DNA of 64,000 nt from Protonemura montana. Lineage: Eukaryota; Arthropoda; Insecta; Plecoptera; Nemouridae. The DNA is taken from positions 13,082,001-13,146,000 of the forward strand of contig OX387606.1 of assembly GCA_947568835.1 (NCBI GenBank). The letters run 5' to 3'. Shown here piece after piece: positions 1 through 55,800 of the stretch. The position numbers and the translations under genes are program-made. Every line of letters starts with the position of its first letter. Position 1 is the stretch's first letter. A model generated the notes under the pieces. The model did no database searches, had not been told where the DNA came from, and saw nothing but the letters and a program-made list of their open reading frames with translations.

Positions 1-3000
1 GTCGACGCCGTTGTGGGCGTCGCGACGCCTTCGCCGAAAGTCCACCGCGGCTTAGACGAAAAATATATCGTACGTCTCGAGAGCACAAGAGCAGGATAAC
101 TAATTGTGTTAATTATAATTCCTCGTTTATTATAAAAACGTGTTTTTTCACCGTTTTTTGCTCGTGGTTTTCGCATATTTAACTCGCAAAGCGTTGTATT
201 GCATTTAAGCTTGCCCGTTAGTATTCCTCGTTCAATTTAAAATAAGAATCAACCTTTGAAAAACAGAACAGTTTTGGCGCAAGTTGTCTAAAACGGCAAT
301 GCACAAGATTAATGCGTGGGTGGCATAAAAACCCTGTCGTTTAGAGTAAACGAGCCCACATTGCACGTTTTACTGAGGGTTTTCCGTTTTAATTTAAGAA
401 AATATTGCTTAAAATTCATAAACGGAGAACCGGTATCGTATTTTCAGAAGAAGAACCACGAACGGCCGGTATCCACAAATCAGAGTTATACCATACATTT
501 GAAAGTTAAGTTGTTATCACCAAGGTAACAACTCTTGAAAATCTGAAATCAACGTCTGAAATTGGCTGTTAATCTTTAAACTCGGAGGCTTACCTTAAAC
601 TCACTTAACGGATCCGGCTGCAGATTCCTGCCTTTTAGCTCGTACGGGTGAAAGTTGCTTGAAGGCTGTATGTTCGCCATTTTTACTGGTGGCTATTTTT
701 CTTGAAAATGCATGTAATTCCGCAATTTGTGAGCTCTTCAGAGGTTATGGCGGGGGGTTTCTTTGTTCCCCTAGCGTAACAAATGACTGCCCTTTCTTCA
801 GCGCGACGCTGACCGATCCACCAGAGGGCAGCACCGCGTCCCAGCAGATGTTTCCACCTAGCTCAACGAAGCGGGTACAAAGCACGCGTAATGAAACTAA
901 TCTAGACAACTTGAGGATTGTTTGGTGCAAATGAAGAGTAAAATTCCTCAGAATGCTTAAGATTTTAGTGCTGCTGGAAGTAGTGAGGAAATCTGCACTT
1001 TGGGACTAAGGTTTAAGTTCCTCTTGGATCTAGGGCCAGGAACCGTTATGACATTCATCCAAGTGAAACGTTGATGGATGAGCGTCTCATATCGAGAACT
1101 GGCGACTTTTGTTACTCACTAGCTACCTTTAAATTTGGTTTGTAATAAATCACAAATGTTCGTAAAATTGTGTTCTGAAACTGACGCAGATCTTGGCTTG
1201 GAGGTGTTCTTATCCGAAACTATGCATGACATCGGGGCTGAACATCCGAGTTAGTTCATCTGTTTGCTGAGAAAATTGTGGACAAATGCAGAAAGAGGGA
1301 AAAAAAATGAAAAAATAAAAATAATTTGGGTTATTTTGGTGGTCAAATTGAATCACTTTGCTCATATGCGAAGAAAATAAAAAATAACCTCAAATACGAC
1401 CGGCAGACGTTGTGCATGTTTCCAGATGATAATGTCCTAATTCCTAATTTACCGCGTAGCGAAGTACACAGTCCTGAATCTCCCTTCCCCTTCACCGGCT
1501 AGCGCTTGAGACAGGTTCAAATGAATAACAGCTCCCTGGCCTCGTTAAACATCCCCGTGGCGATAAACGTACCTAATTACAAAATCAATCTCTTCTCTTA
1601 AGTAATTATTTCACTGTCTGTGTACAAAGTCGCTGGGCGTACACGGGGTCGACACAGATTCGTATGCTGGAAATAGGTGTACGCAAGCTACTAAGTGGGA
1701 TACATTTCACTACTGTACAAATTGAGTCCACGACCGTTTTGCTGGGTAGATGCCGGAAAACCGCTAACTCAAGCTAGTTGAGAAAGATTACTTTGTGTAT
1801 GTTACTCGAGAGTCGAGGGCTTCGAACGAATAGTTACTCTACTTACCTATACAGAACGAGAGAGAGCGGGAGAATAAGAAAGCTATAGGTAAGAACATTT
1901 CTATTGCTCGCAGAAAAGCACAGGGAAAACGTCTTATTCAAGTAGAGACGCGTCTAACAAAATATAAAAGGCAATTGGGCTTCCTGAACAGTGTTTCAAC
2001 GCAAAGATATAAAACATAATTGTGTTACGATTTTCCAAAAAAAAAATACGTGCTTTTCTCTCCACGAAGAAAATAAAGAGTTGCTCGTTTTAAGTTATTT
2101 TCTTCTTGTGTTGTTTGTGTTGGAAATACTTGTCAAAATCTCGAAAACATCAAAAATATTATATCGCTTTCCTCTTTGCTAACACCTGAATAAAACAGAG
2201 CCGAGCTGAATTCCTGTTCGTTCAGCTTGTGTATCTGACAGAGGCAACGGCTATCGGGGCTGCCTTCAGTGCACGCCAAACAACATAGGAAAGGAGGGCC
2301 TCCTTCTTAAATCCACTAGCTGCATTTAATATTTCATAACATCTTTCAAGCGGATATAAAAAGATAGGTTTTTCAATGTATATAACCCCGCGTCGTATCC
2401 TTTTATATTCGAAACTTGAGAGAGGGAAGTTAAGGGAGAAAAGCTTTCTTCTATTACTTTACTATTTTCACTCATAATTGATACAAAGTTGTAAAGACCA
2501 TGGAGCACGGGAGTAAATATCTGCTAATATTAGCTGAAAACGTTGAATAGCCCTGCCTTTACAACAGATTTCAAGAAAGAGAGGCAAACTTTTGAAGAAA
2601 GAATGTTTGATTTTTGTCGCAAGAAAGTTTCAGATTTTTAAATTCAGACTTTGCCATGGTTATAGCGTGACATGGGAGGAAATTAAACGGAATCAAAATG
2701 GCAGATTTCACGTCCCGTGCATGAAATTATTTTCAAACCAATTCTGAAACGTGAAACAGATGAATTGAACAAGTTTCAAATCAGGTCGTGTTTGTTCTCG
2801 ACGACAGACAAAATGCGCGACGCCGCCGACGACGACGCCAGACGCCGATGAGCCCCCGTGCCCAAGGCAATTACTTTCACCACACTTACTAAACAAATGG
2901 AGTGGCTATATAGTCTTTAATAACGTCCTATTATGCGTTCCCTGACGATGATTGTTCCAATCGTTCTGTAGCTCGTGCGCTACCCGAGGTTTAGATATCA

Positions 3001-3540: not shown

Positions 3541-3666
3541 ATCTCTCTCCCAAACCGAATTGGTCATGTATATGATGGTCACCCACCTAATAACTTACCA
3601 AACGCAGTGTGCTTAACTTCGGTGATCTCACGAAAACCGGTTTTTCAAGCACACCAAACCGTTCGA
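3541..3666 (-). mobile_element. 5S-rRNA-derived SINE-like copy 1
   Basis: Read on the minus strand, this stretch resembles the internal part of 5S rRNA: GGTTTTCGTGAGATCACC, then GAAGTTAAGC, then a TAGGTGGGTGACC-like segment in place of the usual CTTGGATGGGTGACC. It is too diverged to be a functional 5S gene. It shares the same 5S-like head and flanking residues (CGAAC...TTGGTCATGT on the plus strand) with the copy at 62561-62696, so the two belong to one family. 5S-headed SINEs (SINE3 type) are known in animals including insects. The body beyond the head is not alignable by eye. Confidence 0.6.
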
Positions 3667-6600
3667 ATGTATCCTTGGTGAGTGATAAAATTTAGGTTGC
3701 GCATTTGCACCTGCGAGGCAAAGTGATACAATTTTATAGATACGTATCTTTTTATGTCTCCGGCAATATGCAAAAAGTGGGCTCAAAACTCGATGTGAAT
3801 GGTGGACAATGGAGAAACAGTTTTATAACACCAGATGTTAAGTGCAAACAAAAAAAAAACTACCCCACTTTTATTTGACATCAGTCGACCAAATAGCAAT
3901 CTGAGCTTAAAACAACGCTGCTGTAACTGATTAAGATACGTTGCCTGGAGGTGCAAATCCCATTAATAAGGTTTGTTAGCTGGTATTACAACGATGTTTG
4001 CATGCGGGAGGTTCCCCAAATTGAAGTGGTATCTGTCAAGCAAAAGCGGCGCAGCGGAAACTTAGGGTAGGTTAAGACGTGCAAGGGGAGAGGGGTATGT
4101 GGTTAACACTGCACTGATTTTGCCCTCAGGAAAGTAAACCATGTGCAAATCAAATCATAGATTCGTCTGATCTGTTTGTTAATTATTCATTTATTCCTTT
4201 CGTATATATGTAGGCTTAGTAGATTTCCGAGGTCTTTGCTTGCAACAGGAAGGGCAATATCTAAAATCGTTGTCGGGTGTGGTATCGCTTTTTTTATCAT
4301 CAACGATCTAAAGGGTTTGACAAGTAAACTGGCAATGAAATTGACAGAGAGTCGGAACCGGGCTGCATAAAAGTGAACGAAGAAGTCATATCGGGATTGA
4401 AATCTAATGCGATTACCTCGATTGTAAGTGTACGATAAGTGACAAAGTAACTGATTGCTATGATTTACATGAACATCCCTCCCCCTATTAAACTCTGATC
4501 TCCAGCTAATTGTCGCCGCCCCTTTCACCCTCTCCCACACCCCAAAAGAGCACCCCATTCCCAGTACCCGTTATCGCAATAATTCGTTATCCATCGCTGG
4601 GTTCCAACGCGCCTATAGGACCAGTGCGATGTTCATTTCACAGCTTCCCTGGTACAGAGTGCCGAATCCTTTAGTGCTTGGTACAATAAACACATGGGAT
4701 AAGTATGGAATTATCACACTTTTTTACAAATAAACGAAATGGTAATATAACAAGTAAAAAATATTTACCGATTAGCCTGTACCAAGCCAGCAAGTCTAAA
4801 TAAAAGCATTTCTGAATATGATGGTAAAGAAAACGTTAGAAATTAACAAATATCGCATGTTTTAACTACAATTTGTAAGCACTTCTTTTAGAATCAAAGG
4901 GATCAAAAAATGTCTTTCGTGAGGATACAATTTTTATGAAAATATATGCCTAAAGGTTTTTAGTTAACATGATTCTATAGAATGTGCTTCTAGCCTGCTG
5001 GAAAATTGTTCCTAGAAGATTGAACGCAATATCATAAAAGAAAACGCGTTTGCAAAATGTACCCATATCAGCTTGTAGTTGAGCAGTTCTTTCCATCATC
5101 TGATCTCCATAATTGGCAACGCAGACATGCGTCACTTACGATTTCCATCAATAACACTTGCTGTTGCTACGTACGCCAGCGCGCTGCCAACGCCACTTGC
5201 CGTGTGGATGCGATCACCCATGCGCTGCCAACTCCGCGCCAACGCCGGGGAGGACGGATTGCACAAGGGCTTTGTGAGAATTACCGAGTGATTTGATTGG
5301 CTTGCTGGATGTCTCTAGGGAACGCTTTTTTTTACAACATCCCTCATCCTAGTGTCAAATGCTTGTGAGTAAATTTTATTGTTCATCACAGGATTATTGT
5401 GACTATATCACATAGCTGGTGGAGTTTTCAAGCACTAGGTTTTGACGGCTAAACCATAGATTATTATGTAACACGATGGTGCACGGCAATTCGTAGGCTA
5501 TACGAACTTGTAAAAGTGGATTAGAGCATAAAACATGTTAAGGGTTATGAATAGTCTAGGCACTTGAAAAATTGTGACTTTTTGATACCTTTTTTTGAGG
5601 TAAACGACGGTTTATTGTCGATCATTCATTCACAAACAGCAAGTGTGAATATTATATAAAAATAACGTTCAATTCTGAAAAATTAGATTCCATTATGCGC
5701 GAGTCTCATCAAACTGACGCGGACTTGCCATCCGATAGCCGCTGAAACGGTGGGCACCAAAAACCAGTCGATTGAGGACGCGAATTACCGACTAATGCCG
5801 GATGACAGAAAAGGAATTAAGCCAATCAGCGAGATGCTTTCATCGTGTCCACGTGTTAAAAGGTTGCAGAATGTTGTGATATGTGTCGATGCCTGCGCTG
5901 CTGGGCGGGCCACAGATTTCCTATACATTATTAACACCACTTATCGCATTTCCCTGCAGAGACTGACGGATCCGGTGGCTGGCTCGACGCAAACACGGCC
6001 CTGCCCAGTGCCGACACTTTTCAAAATCACTCGGGAACGGCGGGAAAACTACACGGGGACTTCGTAGCGATTCTAATTAAGGGGACTGTTTCCTAACTGC
6101 TGATTTTTCAGTGGGTGGTGCAGTTGAAGATAATTGGGATCCCATGTGCTTACCAATTTGGAATGATATATTTGTAGTCCAGTTGACATTTTCTATTCAA
6201 CCACCTATCCACAAGAATCAAAACAAACTCTCTCTAAATATACTTGCAATCTTTTTATAATAAGTACCAACACTTTCTCACACAATTGATTTGAAACATA
6301 AAAATATTTTATTTTCTAAGTGAATTGGATAATATCTGCGAAGGTACGGTAGCAAGCCTAGCGCACCTTTGTTTCTCTGTTTCCGTATTCTTATTAACGG
6401 CCTTCTCTGCAGAAGCATGGAGCAAGGTTGGTTTATGTTACGACTCGAAAGCAGTAAAGGTGTTGTATACGATCTTTTCCCAGCAGAACATTACAATACA
6501 TTGCTGGCTTGGCGGCCGTAGAGTCAGCATCTAGCAGCAGGAGCGGTGCCAACATCAGCACAGGAGCACGAGCAGGATCTTCCAGCTTCCAGTTCAGCGC

Positions 6601-49900: not shown

Positions 49901-52590
49901 TTGTTGGAAATTGAAATCAATTGGGAGTTTAAATGAAGCTAGTATTTAATTGCGGAGATTAAATTAGTGATTTATGTGAGGTATGGGACTCTTAATTTTT
50001 GCGCATTTTAAATGGTGCTTTTTGGAATACATTGTTGAAGGAAACACGTATTCAATGAACTTGCAGAATAGTGTTGACAAAGTTTCTTCAGGTTTATAGG
50101 TTTAGTATGAGTTTGTAATTATTTTAAATGACATTAAGTTCATTTAGCTTGATCTTGATAACTTACATACACATTTTGTGAAGTTTTTTGTACAACAAAA
50201 TTGCTCGTGTTTCGATCCAGGTTTCATAAAACTATCTTTATTCAAGCTTCGAAATTAGGCCAAGCTTTTCGGTCGAATAGGAAAACTAAATACTGATCTT
50301 CATAGATTTCCCAACACGAATAACGCTGAGATTCCATTAAATGTTTTCCCACTAGGTTGAACTGTTGCTGAATATCAGAAGTAACCCAACAACCAACAAC
50401 CAGATACAGGAAGAAACAAGATCACAATCCTCCACCTGCTTCAGCACCATGGTACTAAAACTTGTTAGCACTCACCGCAGTCTCGTTCGTCGCTGGAAAA
50501 CAGCTGATTTGTTTGCGCTGGTTCACTTTTTGTGCGACACCACGTGATTGACTGGGTCGCGTGATTCTCGACAGGCATTCGTGAATAATAAACGACAAAC
50601 TCTTGGTGTTTGATGGATCACCATCACTAACTGTCTTGCCACCACATTTTGTTCCATCGGGAGCTGCTGAACCGATTGCTTCTTCTCCTTTCTGCAAACA
50701 AGAAGACAATGATGTTACCACCGCAAGCGATGTTTTGAACGTAAACAGAACTTGGGTTGCAAAAATAGCTAACAGGTTTGAAGCAGGTAGTCTCGCGTAG
50801 GAAAACGTAAAATTAGGGTATTTTAAACCCACAGACATGGATCGGAATGCAGATATCGTCGGTTCTCTTCTCTACATTTTGATCAGAATTAATTGATATT
50901 TGGGGTACTTGTATCATCGTCTGACAGGTACGGCTTGATAATAAACAATAGCAGGTATGGGTTGTTGTATTTTTTTTTTTCATTTCAACCTAAACTCCCA
51001 ACCAAAATGCTATTTGTGTTATTATTGCTTTTGCGATACGCTGTGGATATAAACAATTTGCTAAAACATCGTATCATTACAACATTTCGGTTTCAGAAAA
51101 TCCAGCTTTGAATAAATACCAATCACAATTTTTATGTTTGAAATCCGGTTTTCGACTTTTGGTTAACTTTAGTAACTGGAAAATCTATTATAAATTACTT
51201 TCCTGAAAATAATTGAGCATCTCAAACTATAAACAATTACACAGATCATGTTTACTGCTCGCTGAAGTACAAGAACTTTGCCAACAAAGAACGACCAGCA
51301 ATGAAAAGCACCAGATTCTCGCATTATCGCCCTCACTTGCACACAGTGTATGCAGCGAGAGGCTTTTCTATAAATGGCAGGCTTATCGAGATAAAGGCCT
51401 GTCAATTTTCTAGTCAATTTTCAGTGAATGGAAGTAGCTAATCCCTGAACAAACCCCTTGTGTATTGATGCTGCGCTCATATGCAAAGAGCCTTCCCCTT
51501 CCCAGCTCCCATTCCTGAACCTCCAACGCTTGAACATCCTCCACCTCTTCCTCCCTAACATTCAATGTAACCCACTCACTCTCTGACGACTCGAAAGTAT
51601 AAGCGCGAGGTTTATTGTATGATAGTAATTTGATGAACTCAGTCTCCCAGCTGTCCCACAGGCCTCCAGTCTCCCTCCCCCGACCACCACACTGAAGTCC
51701 ACCCCACAGGAACGGTACGGCCCCCTGTGTTATGGAGTATCATATATAGAAAGATCGGACCCTCTGACAGGAAGTAAGGGGGTGGGTGAGAGGGTATAGT
51801 AATCGACTGCTAATACACAGTTGTAGCTAGTAACAATAATGTAATTGCTTAAATATCAAACCGACAACAATAACAGAAACCGCAATCCGATTTCTGCCAG
51901 GCGCACGTGAGAAATTGGTAAATAAATATTGTATGACTCGGCAGTTCTTATTGTTGTGGATACCTATTGTAATTGCGTTCTAGTTTGGGGAAGTACAAGA
52001 AAAATATGATAGTGCAGTTGACATAGGTGATAGTTTACATGGGGGACGTGATAGTTGTTGTGATTTAATGAAAATGTGGAGTACTGCAGTGGAAAGTTGG
52101 AGAAAAATCATCAATGAGGTGGGATTTTTGGTAAGAATGTACTTGTGCTGTGAACGTGTGAAGTTGTAAGACATATTGTCGAGTCAATCAAACATTAGGA
52201 TGTATAATATATCTATATATATATACTGTAGAGTGCGTAATTGTAGTATGTTTATTAACGCAATTGCGCGTATGGCTTCGGCAATGTTAACGCGTAGGTT
52301 GCAAAGGAAGGTAGTAATCAGGCCCTGGATTAATCAAGTCTAACACAAAATGAACCTTAGCCCGCTAGATTAAGAGCTTCTTGGGGATTTCATCTCAACC
52401 TAGAGTTAACTCTCAAAAGACAAACTAATCCGCCTTCTAGTAGCTATACGTTATTGTAGGAGTACCTATTCATGTACTTAGCACAGAGGGTTGAGACGGA
52501 AAAGTGTCCCTCTATGCTTTGTTTCATTTTTCATTTTAGAATAAATCGAACACTTTTATTATATTAGAAACACTATTACCCTCTCAAAAA

Positions 52591-52656
52591 TTGATGCCCT
52601 AACGGGGACTCGAACTCCGATCTCCACCTATCGCGGATTGAGCTAGTTGGACACAT
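52591..52656 (-). repeat. tRNA-like unit (left arm of inverted pair, internally deleted)
   Basis: Minus-strand reading keeps TAGCTCAAT, CCGCGATAGGTGGAGATC, B-box GAGTTCGAGTCC and GGGCATCA, but lacks about 14 bases (the GGTAAGAGCAACAC part) present in the right arm. Mirror copy of 52806-52883. Confidence 0.6.
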
Positions 52657-52805
52657 AATTTTTGAGAAGTTTTTAGTGCATTTGATAAGAATGGTTATTA
52701 GCGTCACTAGATTTTGAGTGACTGTACGTTTTCACAGGTTATTGGTTCTACTCCTTGGAGATCCGTCATTCTCATCAAATGCACTCAAATCCTCTCAAAT
52801 AGTTT

Positions 52806-52883
52806 GTGTCTAAGTAGCTCAATAGGTAAGAGCAACACCCGCGATAGGTGGAGATCGCGGTTCAAGTCCCCGTTTGGGCATCA
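52806..52883 (+). repeat. tRNA-like unit (right arm of inverted pair)
   Basis: Contains an A-box-like TAGCTCAATAGG (52815-52826), D-stem GCTC/GAGC, anticodon-stem-like CACC/GGTG, a B-box-like GGTTCAAGTCC (52859-52869), and TGTCTAA pairing (with G-T pairs) to TTGGGCA as acceptor stem. The anticodon loop CGCGATA lacks T33 and the T-stem has a mismatch, so it is a tRNA-derived SINE head or tRNA pseudogene, not a functional tRNA. Confidence 0.6.
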
Positions 52884-55800
52884 ATCTTTGAGAGTAGCTT
52901 TTTTAGTGTTCCTAATAATAAAATACCCCGCGGATTGAAATCGTTTGCAATTTAAATCAGATTTCACAAATCGAACACTTTTCTCGTCACAATTGGGCCT
53001 GTCTTGAGTTACACTGAAAACGTGTTGACGGTGTGCTGGTTGTACGGATCTTCTCCGGATGACGCCTAAAAGTGGCTAATCGTGGGAGATTTTGAGTCGC
53101 AGTCTCAAACAATAATTACATTTTTTACGAGTTGCCTTGTTTTACGTTTCTTAAGAGAATTGCATAAAACTAATTAAACTTTTTCATAGACGTGAAAAAC
53201 GTAAGCTTACAAATTACAACGATAAAAAGCTAATTCTGTTCCACCTTCCATCAACATAGATGAACTAAGGGAGGGTACGAAAAAACTTTGCAAAGTTTCA
53301 TAGTTGCCTTTGTATTTTTTTTTTCAATTAATTTCTTTGCAAGTTGTTTCTCTGCTAAACTAGAACGATTAGACGAAATATATTAGCGCCCTTATTCCTA
53401 GGGAGACCCCTAGCAGCGAGCACTTATGAAGTCTATAAAACTCTTGAGATCACATGGGGACAAAATGTACTTCTTTAAAATAACATGTAGCGTTCTCAGT
53501 TTTCGCATTGATGTATTTTAATTACTTATTTCTGTGCTCGGAGAACTTGCTACGATTTAACCAATGCAGCTTACTTTTTTTTTTTTAAGCTTGGAACGAA
53601 AAGAAATTGTAGATCGCCGTGAAACAAAGGTTATGGAAACGCGCAAAAGAAAGCGTCGTCATAGGAAATGAAAGTCTTAACACAATAACAAATTAGCACG
53701 GAGCAGAAAAGCAAAACAAGGAGAAAGGCTCTTGTCCTTAGCGGAACACGTAGCAGCTTTTATAAAGGATTATAATTTTCTCGCCTCGTTTCGCTTAAAA
53801 ATGCATGCGTATTTAATAATTCTGTCAGTAGTTCTTCCTAAGAATTTACGGTTCCCTTCTTTGGCTCCTTCGCTCGTTGCTAAGGAAGAGAATCTTTCTC
53901 CTTCATTATTGTGGATTAAAATTTACATTGCACAAAGCTTAAATAAAATTACGAAATGGACTGCATTTTCATTACATGAAGTCAGAAGACATCAAAATTT
54001 GTTCGAAAAAAAACTATAAAAATTGACTATTAGTAAGAAAGCTTATTTTGAGCGAGCCCAAGGGTATATGTCCGGTACCCAATGCACCCCTCCCCACCCC
54101 CTTCCAACCCTGCCGGACTCGCGATCTAGGGGTGCGCGCTACCGACAACTTCCGGAAGACAGCCGCGACCAGCAGAGAACTCGTGTCCTCGTCGGCTGCA
54201 GCTTCCGGCCCGGAAAACGCGAGCCAGACCTCAAAACGCGAGCCTCGTTGTCTGTGCTAACCCCGCATATCTACACCTCAATTCTACAGCCCAGATAAGC
54301 ATATAATACCGGAAACCTGCTCACCACTTAGTTTAAAATAGATTTATCATGGTTTCAACAATGCATAGTGTTACAGGATAACCGGAAAAATATATAACGT
54401 AAAGTGCACATGTCTGTCAATTACATGATTTTCTTCGGCAGAGATAAGTGGGTAGGATTTTTTTTCTTTGCCTTAAACTTTTTGTAAGGAGGGTGAGATC
54501 TGATCTTGTAATTAGCTCAGTAATTATTGATGAGCTTTGACATCGTTACTAAGGATATAAAGACTTGCAGGCAATCTCGTTAAACACAAAAAAAAGAAGC
54601 ACAAGTTTTTCTTGGAATTAAAAAAGGGGGTTGGCTAGAAGATAAAAAAACCTTTTAATGAACATGTTAGCGCAATTATTGCGTGTGTCAGCTTGCTTGA
54701 GTGTTTTATATCATCGCATCACGTGAGTAGCACGACAAGGCGCAAGTACTCATTTTCTAAAAAAAAAAAGAAAATTGTGGAAATGAAAAAGAAAACAGGA
54801 GACAATTCCCTTTCAAGACAAATCAACTCTAACCGCGTCGTCGCGGTGAACTGCACGATTGCGATGAGAAAACGAATTGGCGATATTAAGAGAGAGTTCG
54901 AGCTTGAAAAAGAGACGAAAGCAGTATACGAAACAGAGGTAGCTATAGGAAGAGTGACAGAGAGGCAAACACACTGACATAAATAATGCACCAGATAACA
55001 GATTCGTCTGGTTTTGGTTTGACGGTACGAAATCCTCCATGGTGGCACGAGGAAAAATCTCCGAGTCATAAAAGTTGCACGAGTAAAGACCCGTAATGAG
55101 GATATCTGATAAAAGTTTCAAGCAAAAGCTGAAAGAGGGCGGAAAGCCCCCTTAGACTTAACCTATGGTCACTCAAATAGAATGAAGTACATAGATGCAC
55201 TTGGTGGTTGAACGGTGAAGGGGAGGGGCTGGGAAATACCAATGGAAAGTACATTTGAGGTAATGCATGATGTTCAATGTTGTACCAGCTGTCTTGAACT
55301 TTGTCGTTATGGCTACTGGAAAGTGTGTTACTATTCTATAGTGGTTGTGACTGCAGCACGAATAGGGCATCCATCAAGTCGCAAGAAACTGATTGTGAAC
55401 CTGGGTTTTAAGCCTGATGGAGAGGTCACCGGAGAAAGCAAGGAGGATCTTATCGCTAATCGGATTCTATGAGTTCCGGTCGTTTCATCTTCCCGCTAAA
55501 CCGATTCCACAAGTAAGTTCAAAGAAGTTAGTTCGAGTCAAAAACAAACACAACTCCGCTACGAAAGAACTGACATATTTTATTTTTTATTTTTGCAGAA
55601 GACCGAATTATTGAAACATTCTTATTTCGAGGTCAAATCTGCTAGTGCATTTCTTTCCAGCTAAAAAAGTTCGAACGAGTTCTATAAATTTGTATTTTCC
55701 TCGATTCATTCAAAGACTCGGTAGTAAATTTAACTTTGCACGGAATGCAATCACTTTACTCGACGATATATTTTCCATCCAATAAAAAGTGTGTTCGATT

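What the first reader, a model, noticed from the sequence alone, without database searches (positions are those of the whole stretch)
52543..52982. Head-to-head tRNA-like SINE dimer inserted as one unit, with perfect 15-bp target-site duplication
AAATCGAACACTTTT is repeated exactly at both edges, and between lie two ~140-bp inverted arms, each with A/B-box tRNA-like promoter sequence. SINEs are normally monomers or direct dimers; an inverted dimer mobilised as one unit is unusual and would make a long dsRNA hairpin when transcribed. One arm has lost about 14 bp of the tRNA part. It may represent an unnamed foldback-SINE family.
Basis: partly seen in the sequence, partly recalled or inferred. 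Interest (0 to 1): 0.7.

Follow-up and report, generated by a model that had tools for sequence, protein, structure and literature searches.

The report
Mobile tRNA-like repeat inserted back-to-back
A common tRNA-containing mobile repeat in this genome often lands as two mirror-image copies at once; the mirror image seems to be made afresh at each landing, by copying RNA from both sides of the cut, rather than being inherited as a mirror-image unit.

Summary
In detail: window 52543-52982 is two inverted tRNA-like arms (91% and 84% complementary blocks) inside one perfect 15-bp target-site duplication; the left arm lacks 15 bp of the tRNA part. It is one insertion event, but not a member of a foldback-SINE family moved as a unit. 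Its inner junction occurs once in the 258-Mb genome (up to 3 mismatches), and 64 of 64 other inverted copies compared have different junction strings. What recurs are the outer ends: the inverted arm starts at an internal A-rich site ('A') in 64 of 72 loci with inverted matches. Of 114 copies chosen by their 3' end ('B'), 64 (56%) carry this inverted arm; one paper reports 1 of 5554 for Alu and 4 of 477 for SVA. Best reading: twin priming, the two cut strands priming at A and B. The arms overlap and share a subtype marker in 42 of 64 copies, against 1 of 12 direct dimers, so one RNA (or one source gene) was probably copied twice. The direct arm stops at tRNA position 59-60 in 26 of 112 copies, just past A58, which may record m1A58. 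Microhomology at A was not clearly enriched. Partner LINE and species unknown.

The parts
52543..52557 (.). left copy of the 15-bp target-site duplication
   Evidence: exact repeat of 52968-52982; 9 copies of the 15-mer in the genome, backwards control 3
52558..52693 (-). inverted arm ('A arm'): starts at the A-rich site (unit position 288) and runs to unit position 136; lacks unit positions 193-207 (gap between 52636 and 52637)
   Evidence: alignment to reference unit L028:600-947; inverted repeats
52680..52709 (.). inner junction of the two arms (arms meet around 52693/52694)
   Evidence: this 30-mer is found once in the genome with up to 3 mismatches
52694..52967 (+). direct arm ('B arm'): unit position about 62-68 to the 3' end
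   Evidence: alignment to the L028 unit, 85%
52807..52882 (+). tRNA-like segment with A and B boxes; the position equivalent to A58 is 52865
   Evidence: ARAGORN, Rfam RF00005; T-loop GGTTCAAGTCC starts at 52859, numbering as
52914..52924 (+). A-rich site AATAATAAAAT ('A', unit 279-289), the start point of the inverted arm in other copies
   Evidence: 64 of 72 loci with inverted matches start here
52926..52967 (+). 3' tail, absent from the inverted arm; element 3' end ('B')
52968..52982 (.). right copy of the target-site duplication

Best explanation
The window holds one insertion of a high-copy, tRNA-containing, SINE-like retroelement (unit about 331-336 nt), made by twin priming. Shown: one TSD around both arms; in the family the inverted arm starts at a fixed internal A-rich site and the direct arm ends at the element's 3' end; the inner junctions compared are all different. 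Inferred: one nicked target strand primed reverse transcription at the RNA 3' end (B), the other primed at the A-rich site (A), and the two cDNAs were joined where each stopped. Because the arms overlap and carry the same subtype markers more often than chance, I infer that in most sampled inverted copies both arms were read from one RNA molecule (or two from one source gene), copied twice, rather than from the two units of a direct dimer. Stops at tRNA position 59-60 suggest reverse transcriptase halting at a methylated A58 (m1A58), a further inference.
For: Single TSDs around inverted copies, for example L071 17 bp, L040 15 bp, L073 13 bp and L092 12 bp, all perfect. 64 of 64 junction strings distinct; window junction found once; the window's left half plus junction scored 329 bits on itself and at most 157 elsewhere (40 scored). 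Outer ends: of 72 loci with inverted matches among 114, 64 start at unit 282-297 (one of them, L155, at the edge of the fetched stretch). Position-ordered check: among the 100 places listed, 10 pairs within 600 bp are on opposite strands, all minus-then-plus, and in 8 of 10 exactly one member continues into the tail. L097 (arm 1 288->216, arm 2 starting at 289), L056 and L062 look like textbook non-overlapping twin priming. Same subtype at unit 276-277: 42 of 64 inverted copies against 25.5 expected (0 of 5000 within-sample permutations reach it) and 1 of 12 direct dimers (Fisher p = 0.0003). Unit 239: same in 25 of 28.
Against: Microhomology between the TSD end and the A site is not clearly enriched: overlap of 2 nt or more in 9 of 26 copies with a scored TSD, null 24%; 5'-inverted L1 is reported to depend on it (PMC2912911, passages). 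Classical twin priming gives non-overlapping arms; overlap needs a second pass on the RNA or a second RNA. 22 of 79 loci gave no TSD and many others only a weak one. Not all inverted arms start at A: L123, L129 and L197 start at the 3' end (unit 333-338), L184 is cut off at 330, and L130, L140, L196 and L198 fit neither or are cut off, short or doubtful. The A window (278-300) was set by me after seeing the first copies. No partner LINE was identified.
Confidence: 0.82

Rival explanations
1. A true foldback-SINE family: an inverted-dimer master is transcribed and retrotransposed whole.
For: Other inverted copies with single TSDs exist.
Against: 64 of 64 junction strings distinct; window junction unique; inverted arms range from a few tens of nt to more than one unit.
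Confidence: 0.04
2. Classical twin priming on a direct-dimer RNA: the A arm is read from the first unit, the B arm from the second, without overlap on the template.
For: 5'-truncated direct dimers with TSDs exist (L028 13 bp, L073 13 bp); in L097, L056 and L062 the arms meet at the priming site.
Against: Direct dimers join unlike subtypes (1 of 12 alike, 3.1 expected), whereas inverted arms are alike (42 of 64). The direct-dimer set is small and comes mostly from other queries than the inverted set.
Confidence: 0.25
3. Two RNA molecules from the same source gene, held in one particle, each primed by one target strand.
For: Explains overlap and matching subtypes; U5 RNA with L1 is proposed as such a two-RNA twin-priming product (PMC4476161, passages).
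Against: If direct dimers arise by jumping between RNAs of the same pool, they mix subtypes, so the pool is not uniform.
Confidence: 0.3
4. Snap-back: one cDNA folds on itself and is copied to give the second arm.
For: Some copies are near-perfect palindromes with a short loop (L009).
Against: Several inverted arms extend further into the unit than the direct arm (L109 to 124 against 242, L110 to 3 against 181, L136 to 23 against 128), while the direct arm alone has the tail, so in these neither arm can be a copy of the other.
Confidence: 0.06
5. Two independent insertions side by side.
For: None beyond the presence of two arms.
Against: A single 15-bp TSD around both arms; the only other direct repeats found in 52400-53100 are 17-22 bp at 73-82% identity and lie inside the element; recurrent minus-then-plus geometry.
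Confidence: 0.02

Closest known systems
Twin priming / 5' inversion of L1 (Ostertag and Kazazian 2001, as cited in PMC4476161; PMC2912911; PMC4245944; passages seen)
   Same: Inverted 5' segment, direct 3' segment, one TSD of about 10-17 bp, variable inner junction.
   Different: Here a short tRNA-containing element; the inverted arm starts at one fixed internal A-rich site; the arms overlap in the sampled copies; share of inverted copies 64 of 114 against 639 of 2068 for L1 in PMC2912911. That paper required TSDs; my sample did not.
Alu and SVA
   Same: Non-autonomous, TSD-flanked retroelements mobilised in trans.
   Different: 5' inversion reported in 1 of 5554 Alu and 4 of 477 SVA insertions (PMC2912911, passages); here 64 of 114 in a 3'-end sample.
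Tailless retropseudogenes (PMC5322556, passages)
   Same: Priming at internal, A-rich, single-stranded sites of tRNA-like RNAs.
   Different: Those are single 3'-truncated copies; here the internally primed copy is paired with a second copy primed at the 3' end.
tRNA-derived insect SINEs such as HaSE1 (PMC3272025, passages)
   Same: tRNA-like promoter region, TSDs of similar length, 5'-truncated copies.
   Different: HaSE1 has its tRNA region at the 5' end and TGA repeats at the 3' end; here the tRNA begins about 175 nt into the unit and the 3' end is ...TTCATCCTAAT.
Twin SINE of mosquitoes and Penelope-like elements (both recalled, no call)
   Same: Two tRNA-related parts (Twin); flanking repeats in direct or inverted orientation (Penelope).
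   Different: Twin is a direct dimer; no ribozyme family matched the unit. No Penelope-type gene was looked for.

Membership tests
SINE | internal tRNA-like Pol III promoter region | tested here: met
   Rfam tRNA 37.4 bits and 39.8 bits in L028; ARAGORN
SINE | tRNA-related region at the 5' end of the element | tested here: not met
   tRNA starts at about unit position 177 of about 336; the true 5' end is not proven
SINE | short, dispersed, TSD-flanked, high copy | tested here: met
   2075 exact matches to a 30-mer, backwards control 0; TSDs in a part of the copies
SINE | 3' end shared with a partner LINE | not tested
   only 40 candidates are scored per search, so LINEs would be hidden behind the many copies of the element
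SINE | Pol III transcript reaching the 3' end | not testable with these tools
   a T5 run at unit 254-258 could stop Pol III before the tail
twin priming (5' inversion) | one TSD around an inverted plus a direct segment | tested here: met
   window; further copies; 22 of 79 loci without a TSD
twin priming (5' inversion) | inner junction varies between insertions | tested here: met
   64 of 64 distinct
twin priming (5' inversion) | microhomology where the second strand primes | tested here: inconclusive
   9 of 26 with 2 nt or more, null 24%
twin priming (5' inversion) | segments non-overlapping on the RNA | tested here: not met
   arms overlap in the sampled copies; the sampling asked for long B arms, so non-overlapping copies (L056, L062, L097) are under-counted
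foldback SINE family | copies share the inverted-dimer junction | tested here: not met
retrozyme / ribozyme-bearing retroelement | hammerhead or other self-cleaving ribozyme in the unit | tested here: not met
   L028:440-970 at E up to 10: tRNA and two weak snoRNA matches only

The most novel reading that the evidence does not exclude
A retroelement whose RNA is habitually copied twice in one integration, from its 3' end by one target strand and from a built-in internal A-rich second primer site by the other, so that an inverted overlapping duplication is the normal product; and whose truncation points record a modified base (m1A58) of its tRNA-like fold, so that the genome holds a fossil map of RNA methylation.
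Probability: 0.35. Interest if true: 0.78.

Novelty: new variant of a known kind. Interest (0 to 1): 0.6.

Why it matters
In the one survey whose passages I saw, short trans-mobilised elements are hardly ever 5'-inverted, yet here inversion is the commonest product in a 3'-end sample. A high-copy family (2075 exact matches to one 30-mer) thus becomes a natural data set for how the second strand primes, whether one RNA can be copied twice, and where reverse transcriptase stops in germ cells. The peak at tRNA position 59-60 makes a direct test possible: whether a SINE RNA carries m1A58 and whether that mark sets where copies are truncated. The long inverted repeats are also a potential endogenous dsRNA source.

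Tried and rejected
Foldback family moved as a unit: rejected for the copies compared. Two insertions: rejected (single TSD). Snap-back: rejected for copies whose inverted arm is the longer one. Ribozyme-bearing retrozyme: no Rfam ribozyme match. An m1A signature beyond the stop: in the first set the base just before unit 235 was T in 11 of 13 copies ending there; I wrote this down as a test before fetching a second set, where only 1 copy ended at 235 (with T) and 6 at 236 (preceded by t, a, a, c, t, c), so the misincorporation idea is not supported. Microhomology at A looked strong by eye but not in a defined count (9 of 26 against a 24% null; a first version was spoiled by the variable site at unit 276-277 and discarded). 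A LINE partner search by the 3' tail was not attempted because only 40 candidates are scored. Literature searches on inverted, dimeric or twin-primed SINEs; on m1A58 with SINE truncation. From the titles and abstracts listed I saw no matching report, but the listings were capped and the library lacks most subscription papers. One search (five exact phrases such as 'foldback SINE') found 0 papers.
Full report
WHAT IS THERE. The window lies at G000:C4:13082001-13146000 of a 258-Mb genome in 34 contigs, unnamed here. The interval holds a perfect 15-bp TSD, an inverted arm 52558-52693 and a direct arm 52694-52967. ARAGORN and Rfam both find a tRNA at about 52807-52882 in the direct arm; the inverted arm lacks 15 tRNA bases (unit 193-207). 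The TSD 15-mer occurs 9 times in the genome, backwards control 3. The RNA of the insert folds with z = -16.

THE ELEMENT. A search with the insert gave 3970 first-look candidates (40 scored). I used one copy, L028:600-947 (348 nt, here 'U'), as reference, not a consensus. The tRNA begins at U177, so tRNA number = U - 176; A58 of the T-loop is U234. An A-rich site AATAATAAAAT lies at U279-289 ('A'); the element's 3' end (...CATCCTAAT) is at U338 ('B'). Direct tandem copies join about U338 to U3, and the three same-strand pairs among the 100 places listed are each 331 bp apart. Exact matches to a 30-mer at A: 2075, backwards control 0; a near-nested pattern that continues into the tail has 946, so about half of the A sites are not followed by the exact tail (arm ends or mutations).

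ONE INSERTION, NOT A FAMILY OF INVERTED DIMERS. The window's inner junction (30-mer, up to 3 mismatches) is found once in the genome. To sample copies without regard to their 5' side I searched with three different 3' ends (from L028, from L012, from the window) and fetched 39 of each list of 40, leaving out the query itself (117 loci). With an inverted arm starting at A: 25, 22 and 20 of 39. After dropping three loci (L125, L191, L213), 64 of 114. Because only 330-420 bp upstream were fetched, arms further up would be missed. Eight further loci have other inverted matches: L123, L129 and L197 start at the 3' end; L184 is cut off at U330 by the edge of the stretch; L130 is a cut-off array; L196 starts at U151 near the edge; L198 is a 34-nt match; L140 is a 21-nt match that may be chance. 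One of the 64, L155, also starts at the edge of its stretch. All 64 inner-junction strings differ; of 60 copies with both ends mapped, 57 pairs of end coordinates are distinct. Where I scored a TSD (26 distinct inverted copies, threshold 9) its length is 9-17 bp, and some of the weakest may be chance. In one search, 22 of 79 loci gave no TSD and many more only a weak one.

AN INDEPENDENT CHECK BY POSITION. The 100 A-site matches listed are in chromosomal order (C1 up to 30.35 Mb) and not chosen by likeness to an inverted copy, though both members of a pair must match exactly. Ten pairs lie within 600 bp on opposite strands, all ten minus-then-plus (3' ends outward), and in 8 of 10 exactly one member continues into the tail (one search list); one pair has both, one neither.

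MECHANISM. This is the signature of twin priming: one nicked strand primes at the RNA 3' end, the other on an internal site, and the two cDNAs are joined. PMC2912911 (passages) describes the model and reports 5'-inverted copies in 639 of 2068 L1, 1 of 5554 Alu and 4 of 477 SVA insertions; it counted insertions with TSDs in human and chimpanzee, so the comparison with my 3'-end sample is rough. Retrotransposition experiments found 5' inversion to depend on host and LINE species and to go with TSDs of 10-20 bp (PMC4245944, passages). Tailless retropseudogenes show that internal A-rich loops can serve as priming sites (PMC5322556, passages). In L097, L056 and L062 the direct arm stops where the inverted arm begins, as the classical model requires.

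THE ARMS OVERLAP AND MATCH. In the sampled copies both arms cover a common stretch next to A, so the template was read twice there. The sampling asked for a long direct arm, so non-overlapping copies are under-represented. At a variable dinucleotide (U276-277) both arms agree in 42 of 64 copies, against 25.5 in permutations within each sample (maximum 38 in 5000); in the sample, 19 of 24. At U239, 25 of 28 agree (Fisher p = 0.0005). Direct dimers agree in only 1 of 12 (3.1 expected; Fisher p = 0.0003 against the inverted copies); these 12 come mostly from other queries. I infer that direct dimers join different RNAs, whereas the inverted arms come from one RNA or one source gene. Later gene conversion between the arms could mimic this, and overall identity at U250-288 is less telling (own arm 0.916, other copies 0.885; direct dimers 0.910).

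WHERE COPYING STOPS. The inner end of the direct arm falls at U235-236 in 26 of 112 copies, against about 1.7 expected from neighbouring positions. The first set gave 19 of 76; a second set, fetched after I had written the expectation down, gave 7 of 36, mostly at 236 rather than 235. Inverted arms end there in 8 of 60. U235 is tRNA position 59, directly 3' of A58. m1A58 is a strong stop for reverse transcriptase, and T-loop cleavage gives some 3' tRNA fragments with a similar end (both recalled, no call). A stop caused by the T-stem alone would be expected at about U241, where a smaller cluster lies. The related prediction of a misread base did not hold up.

RESULTS AGAINST. Microhomology at A is not clearly above chance (9 of 26, null 24%). 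A few inverted arms do not start at A. The tRNA is not at the 5' end, and a T5 run at U254-258 could stop Pol III, so 'SINE' is used loosely. Empty sites, transcription and the partner LINE are untested. Species unknown: the genome has no relatives in the collection.

VERDICT. A real structure, correctly seen; the inversion is best explained as produced at insertion by a known kind of mechanism used in an unusual, near-habitual and overlapping form. Interest is moderate to good because of the frequency, the fixed second priming site and the stop at position 59.

Noticed in passing
L051, L052, L055, L060, L067, L069, L070, L071, L074, L075: Arrays of a 52-bp sub-repeat of the tRNA part (about U177-228), from a few to more than 20 copies, in L051 and L071 on both arms. 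The repeat junction joins the similar GTTCRAGT (T-loop) and GTCCAAGT (tRNA start).
   Followed up: partly
one search hits across contigs C1-C5, C11, C12, C15: Of the 40 copies most similar to L028's upstream part, 37 lie within 3 Mb of a contig end by my count from the listing, so the most similar copies seem to be subterminal.
   Followed up: no
window 3548-3667, minus strand: Weak 5S rRNA match (38.5 bits, cut-off 38), perhaps a 5S pseudogene or 5S-derived repeat.
   Followed up: no
L118 (G000:C1:1-400): The contig starts in a tandem repeat of about 100 bp rather than a short telomere repeat (sequence printed).
   Followed up: no
unit position 113-123, window 52744-52754: A second B-box-like GGTTCTACTCC lies upstream of the tRNA, so the unit may contain a second, degenerate tRNA-like head.
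   Followed up: no
L124 and L125 (C14:11859116 and C14:11840706): Same inverted insertion with the same TSD 18 kb apart, most likely a segmental duplication.
   Followed up: partly
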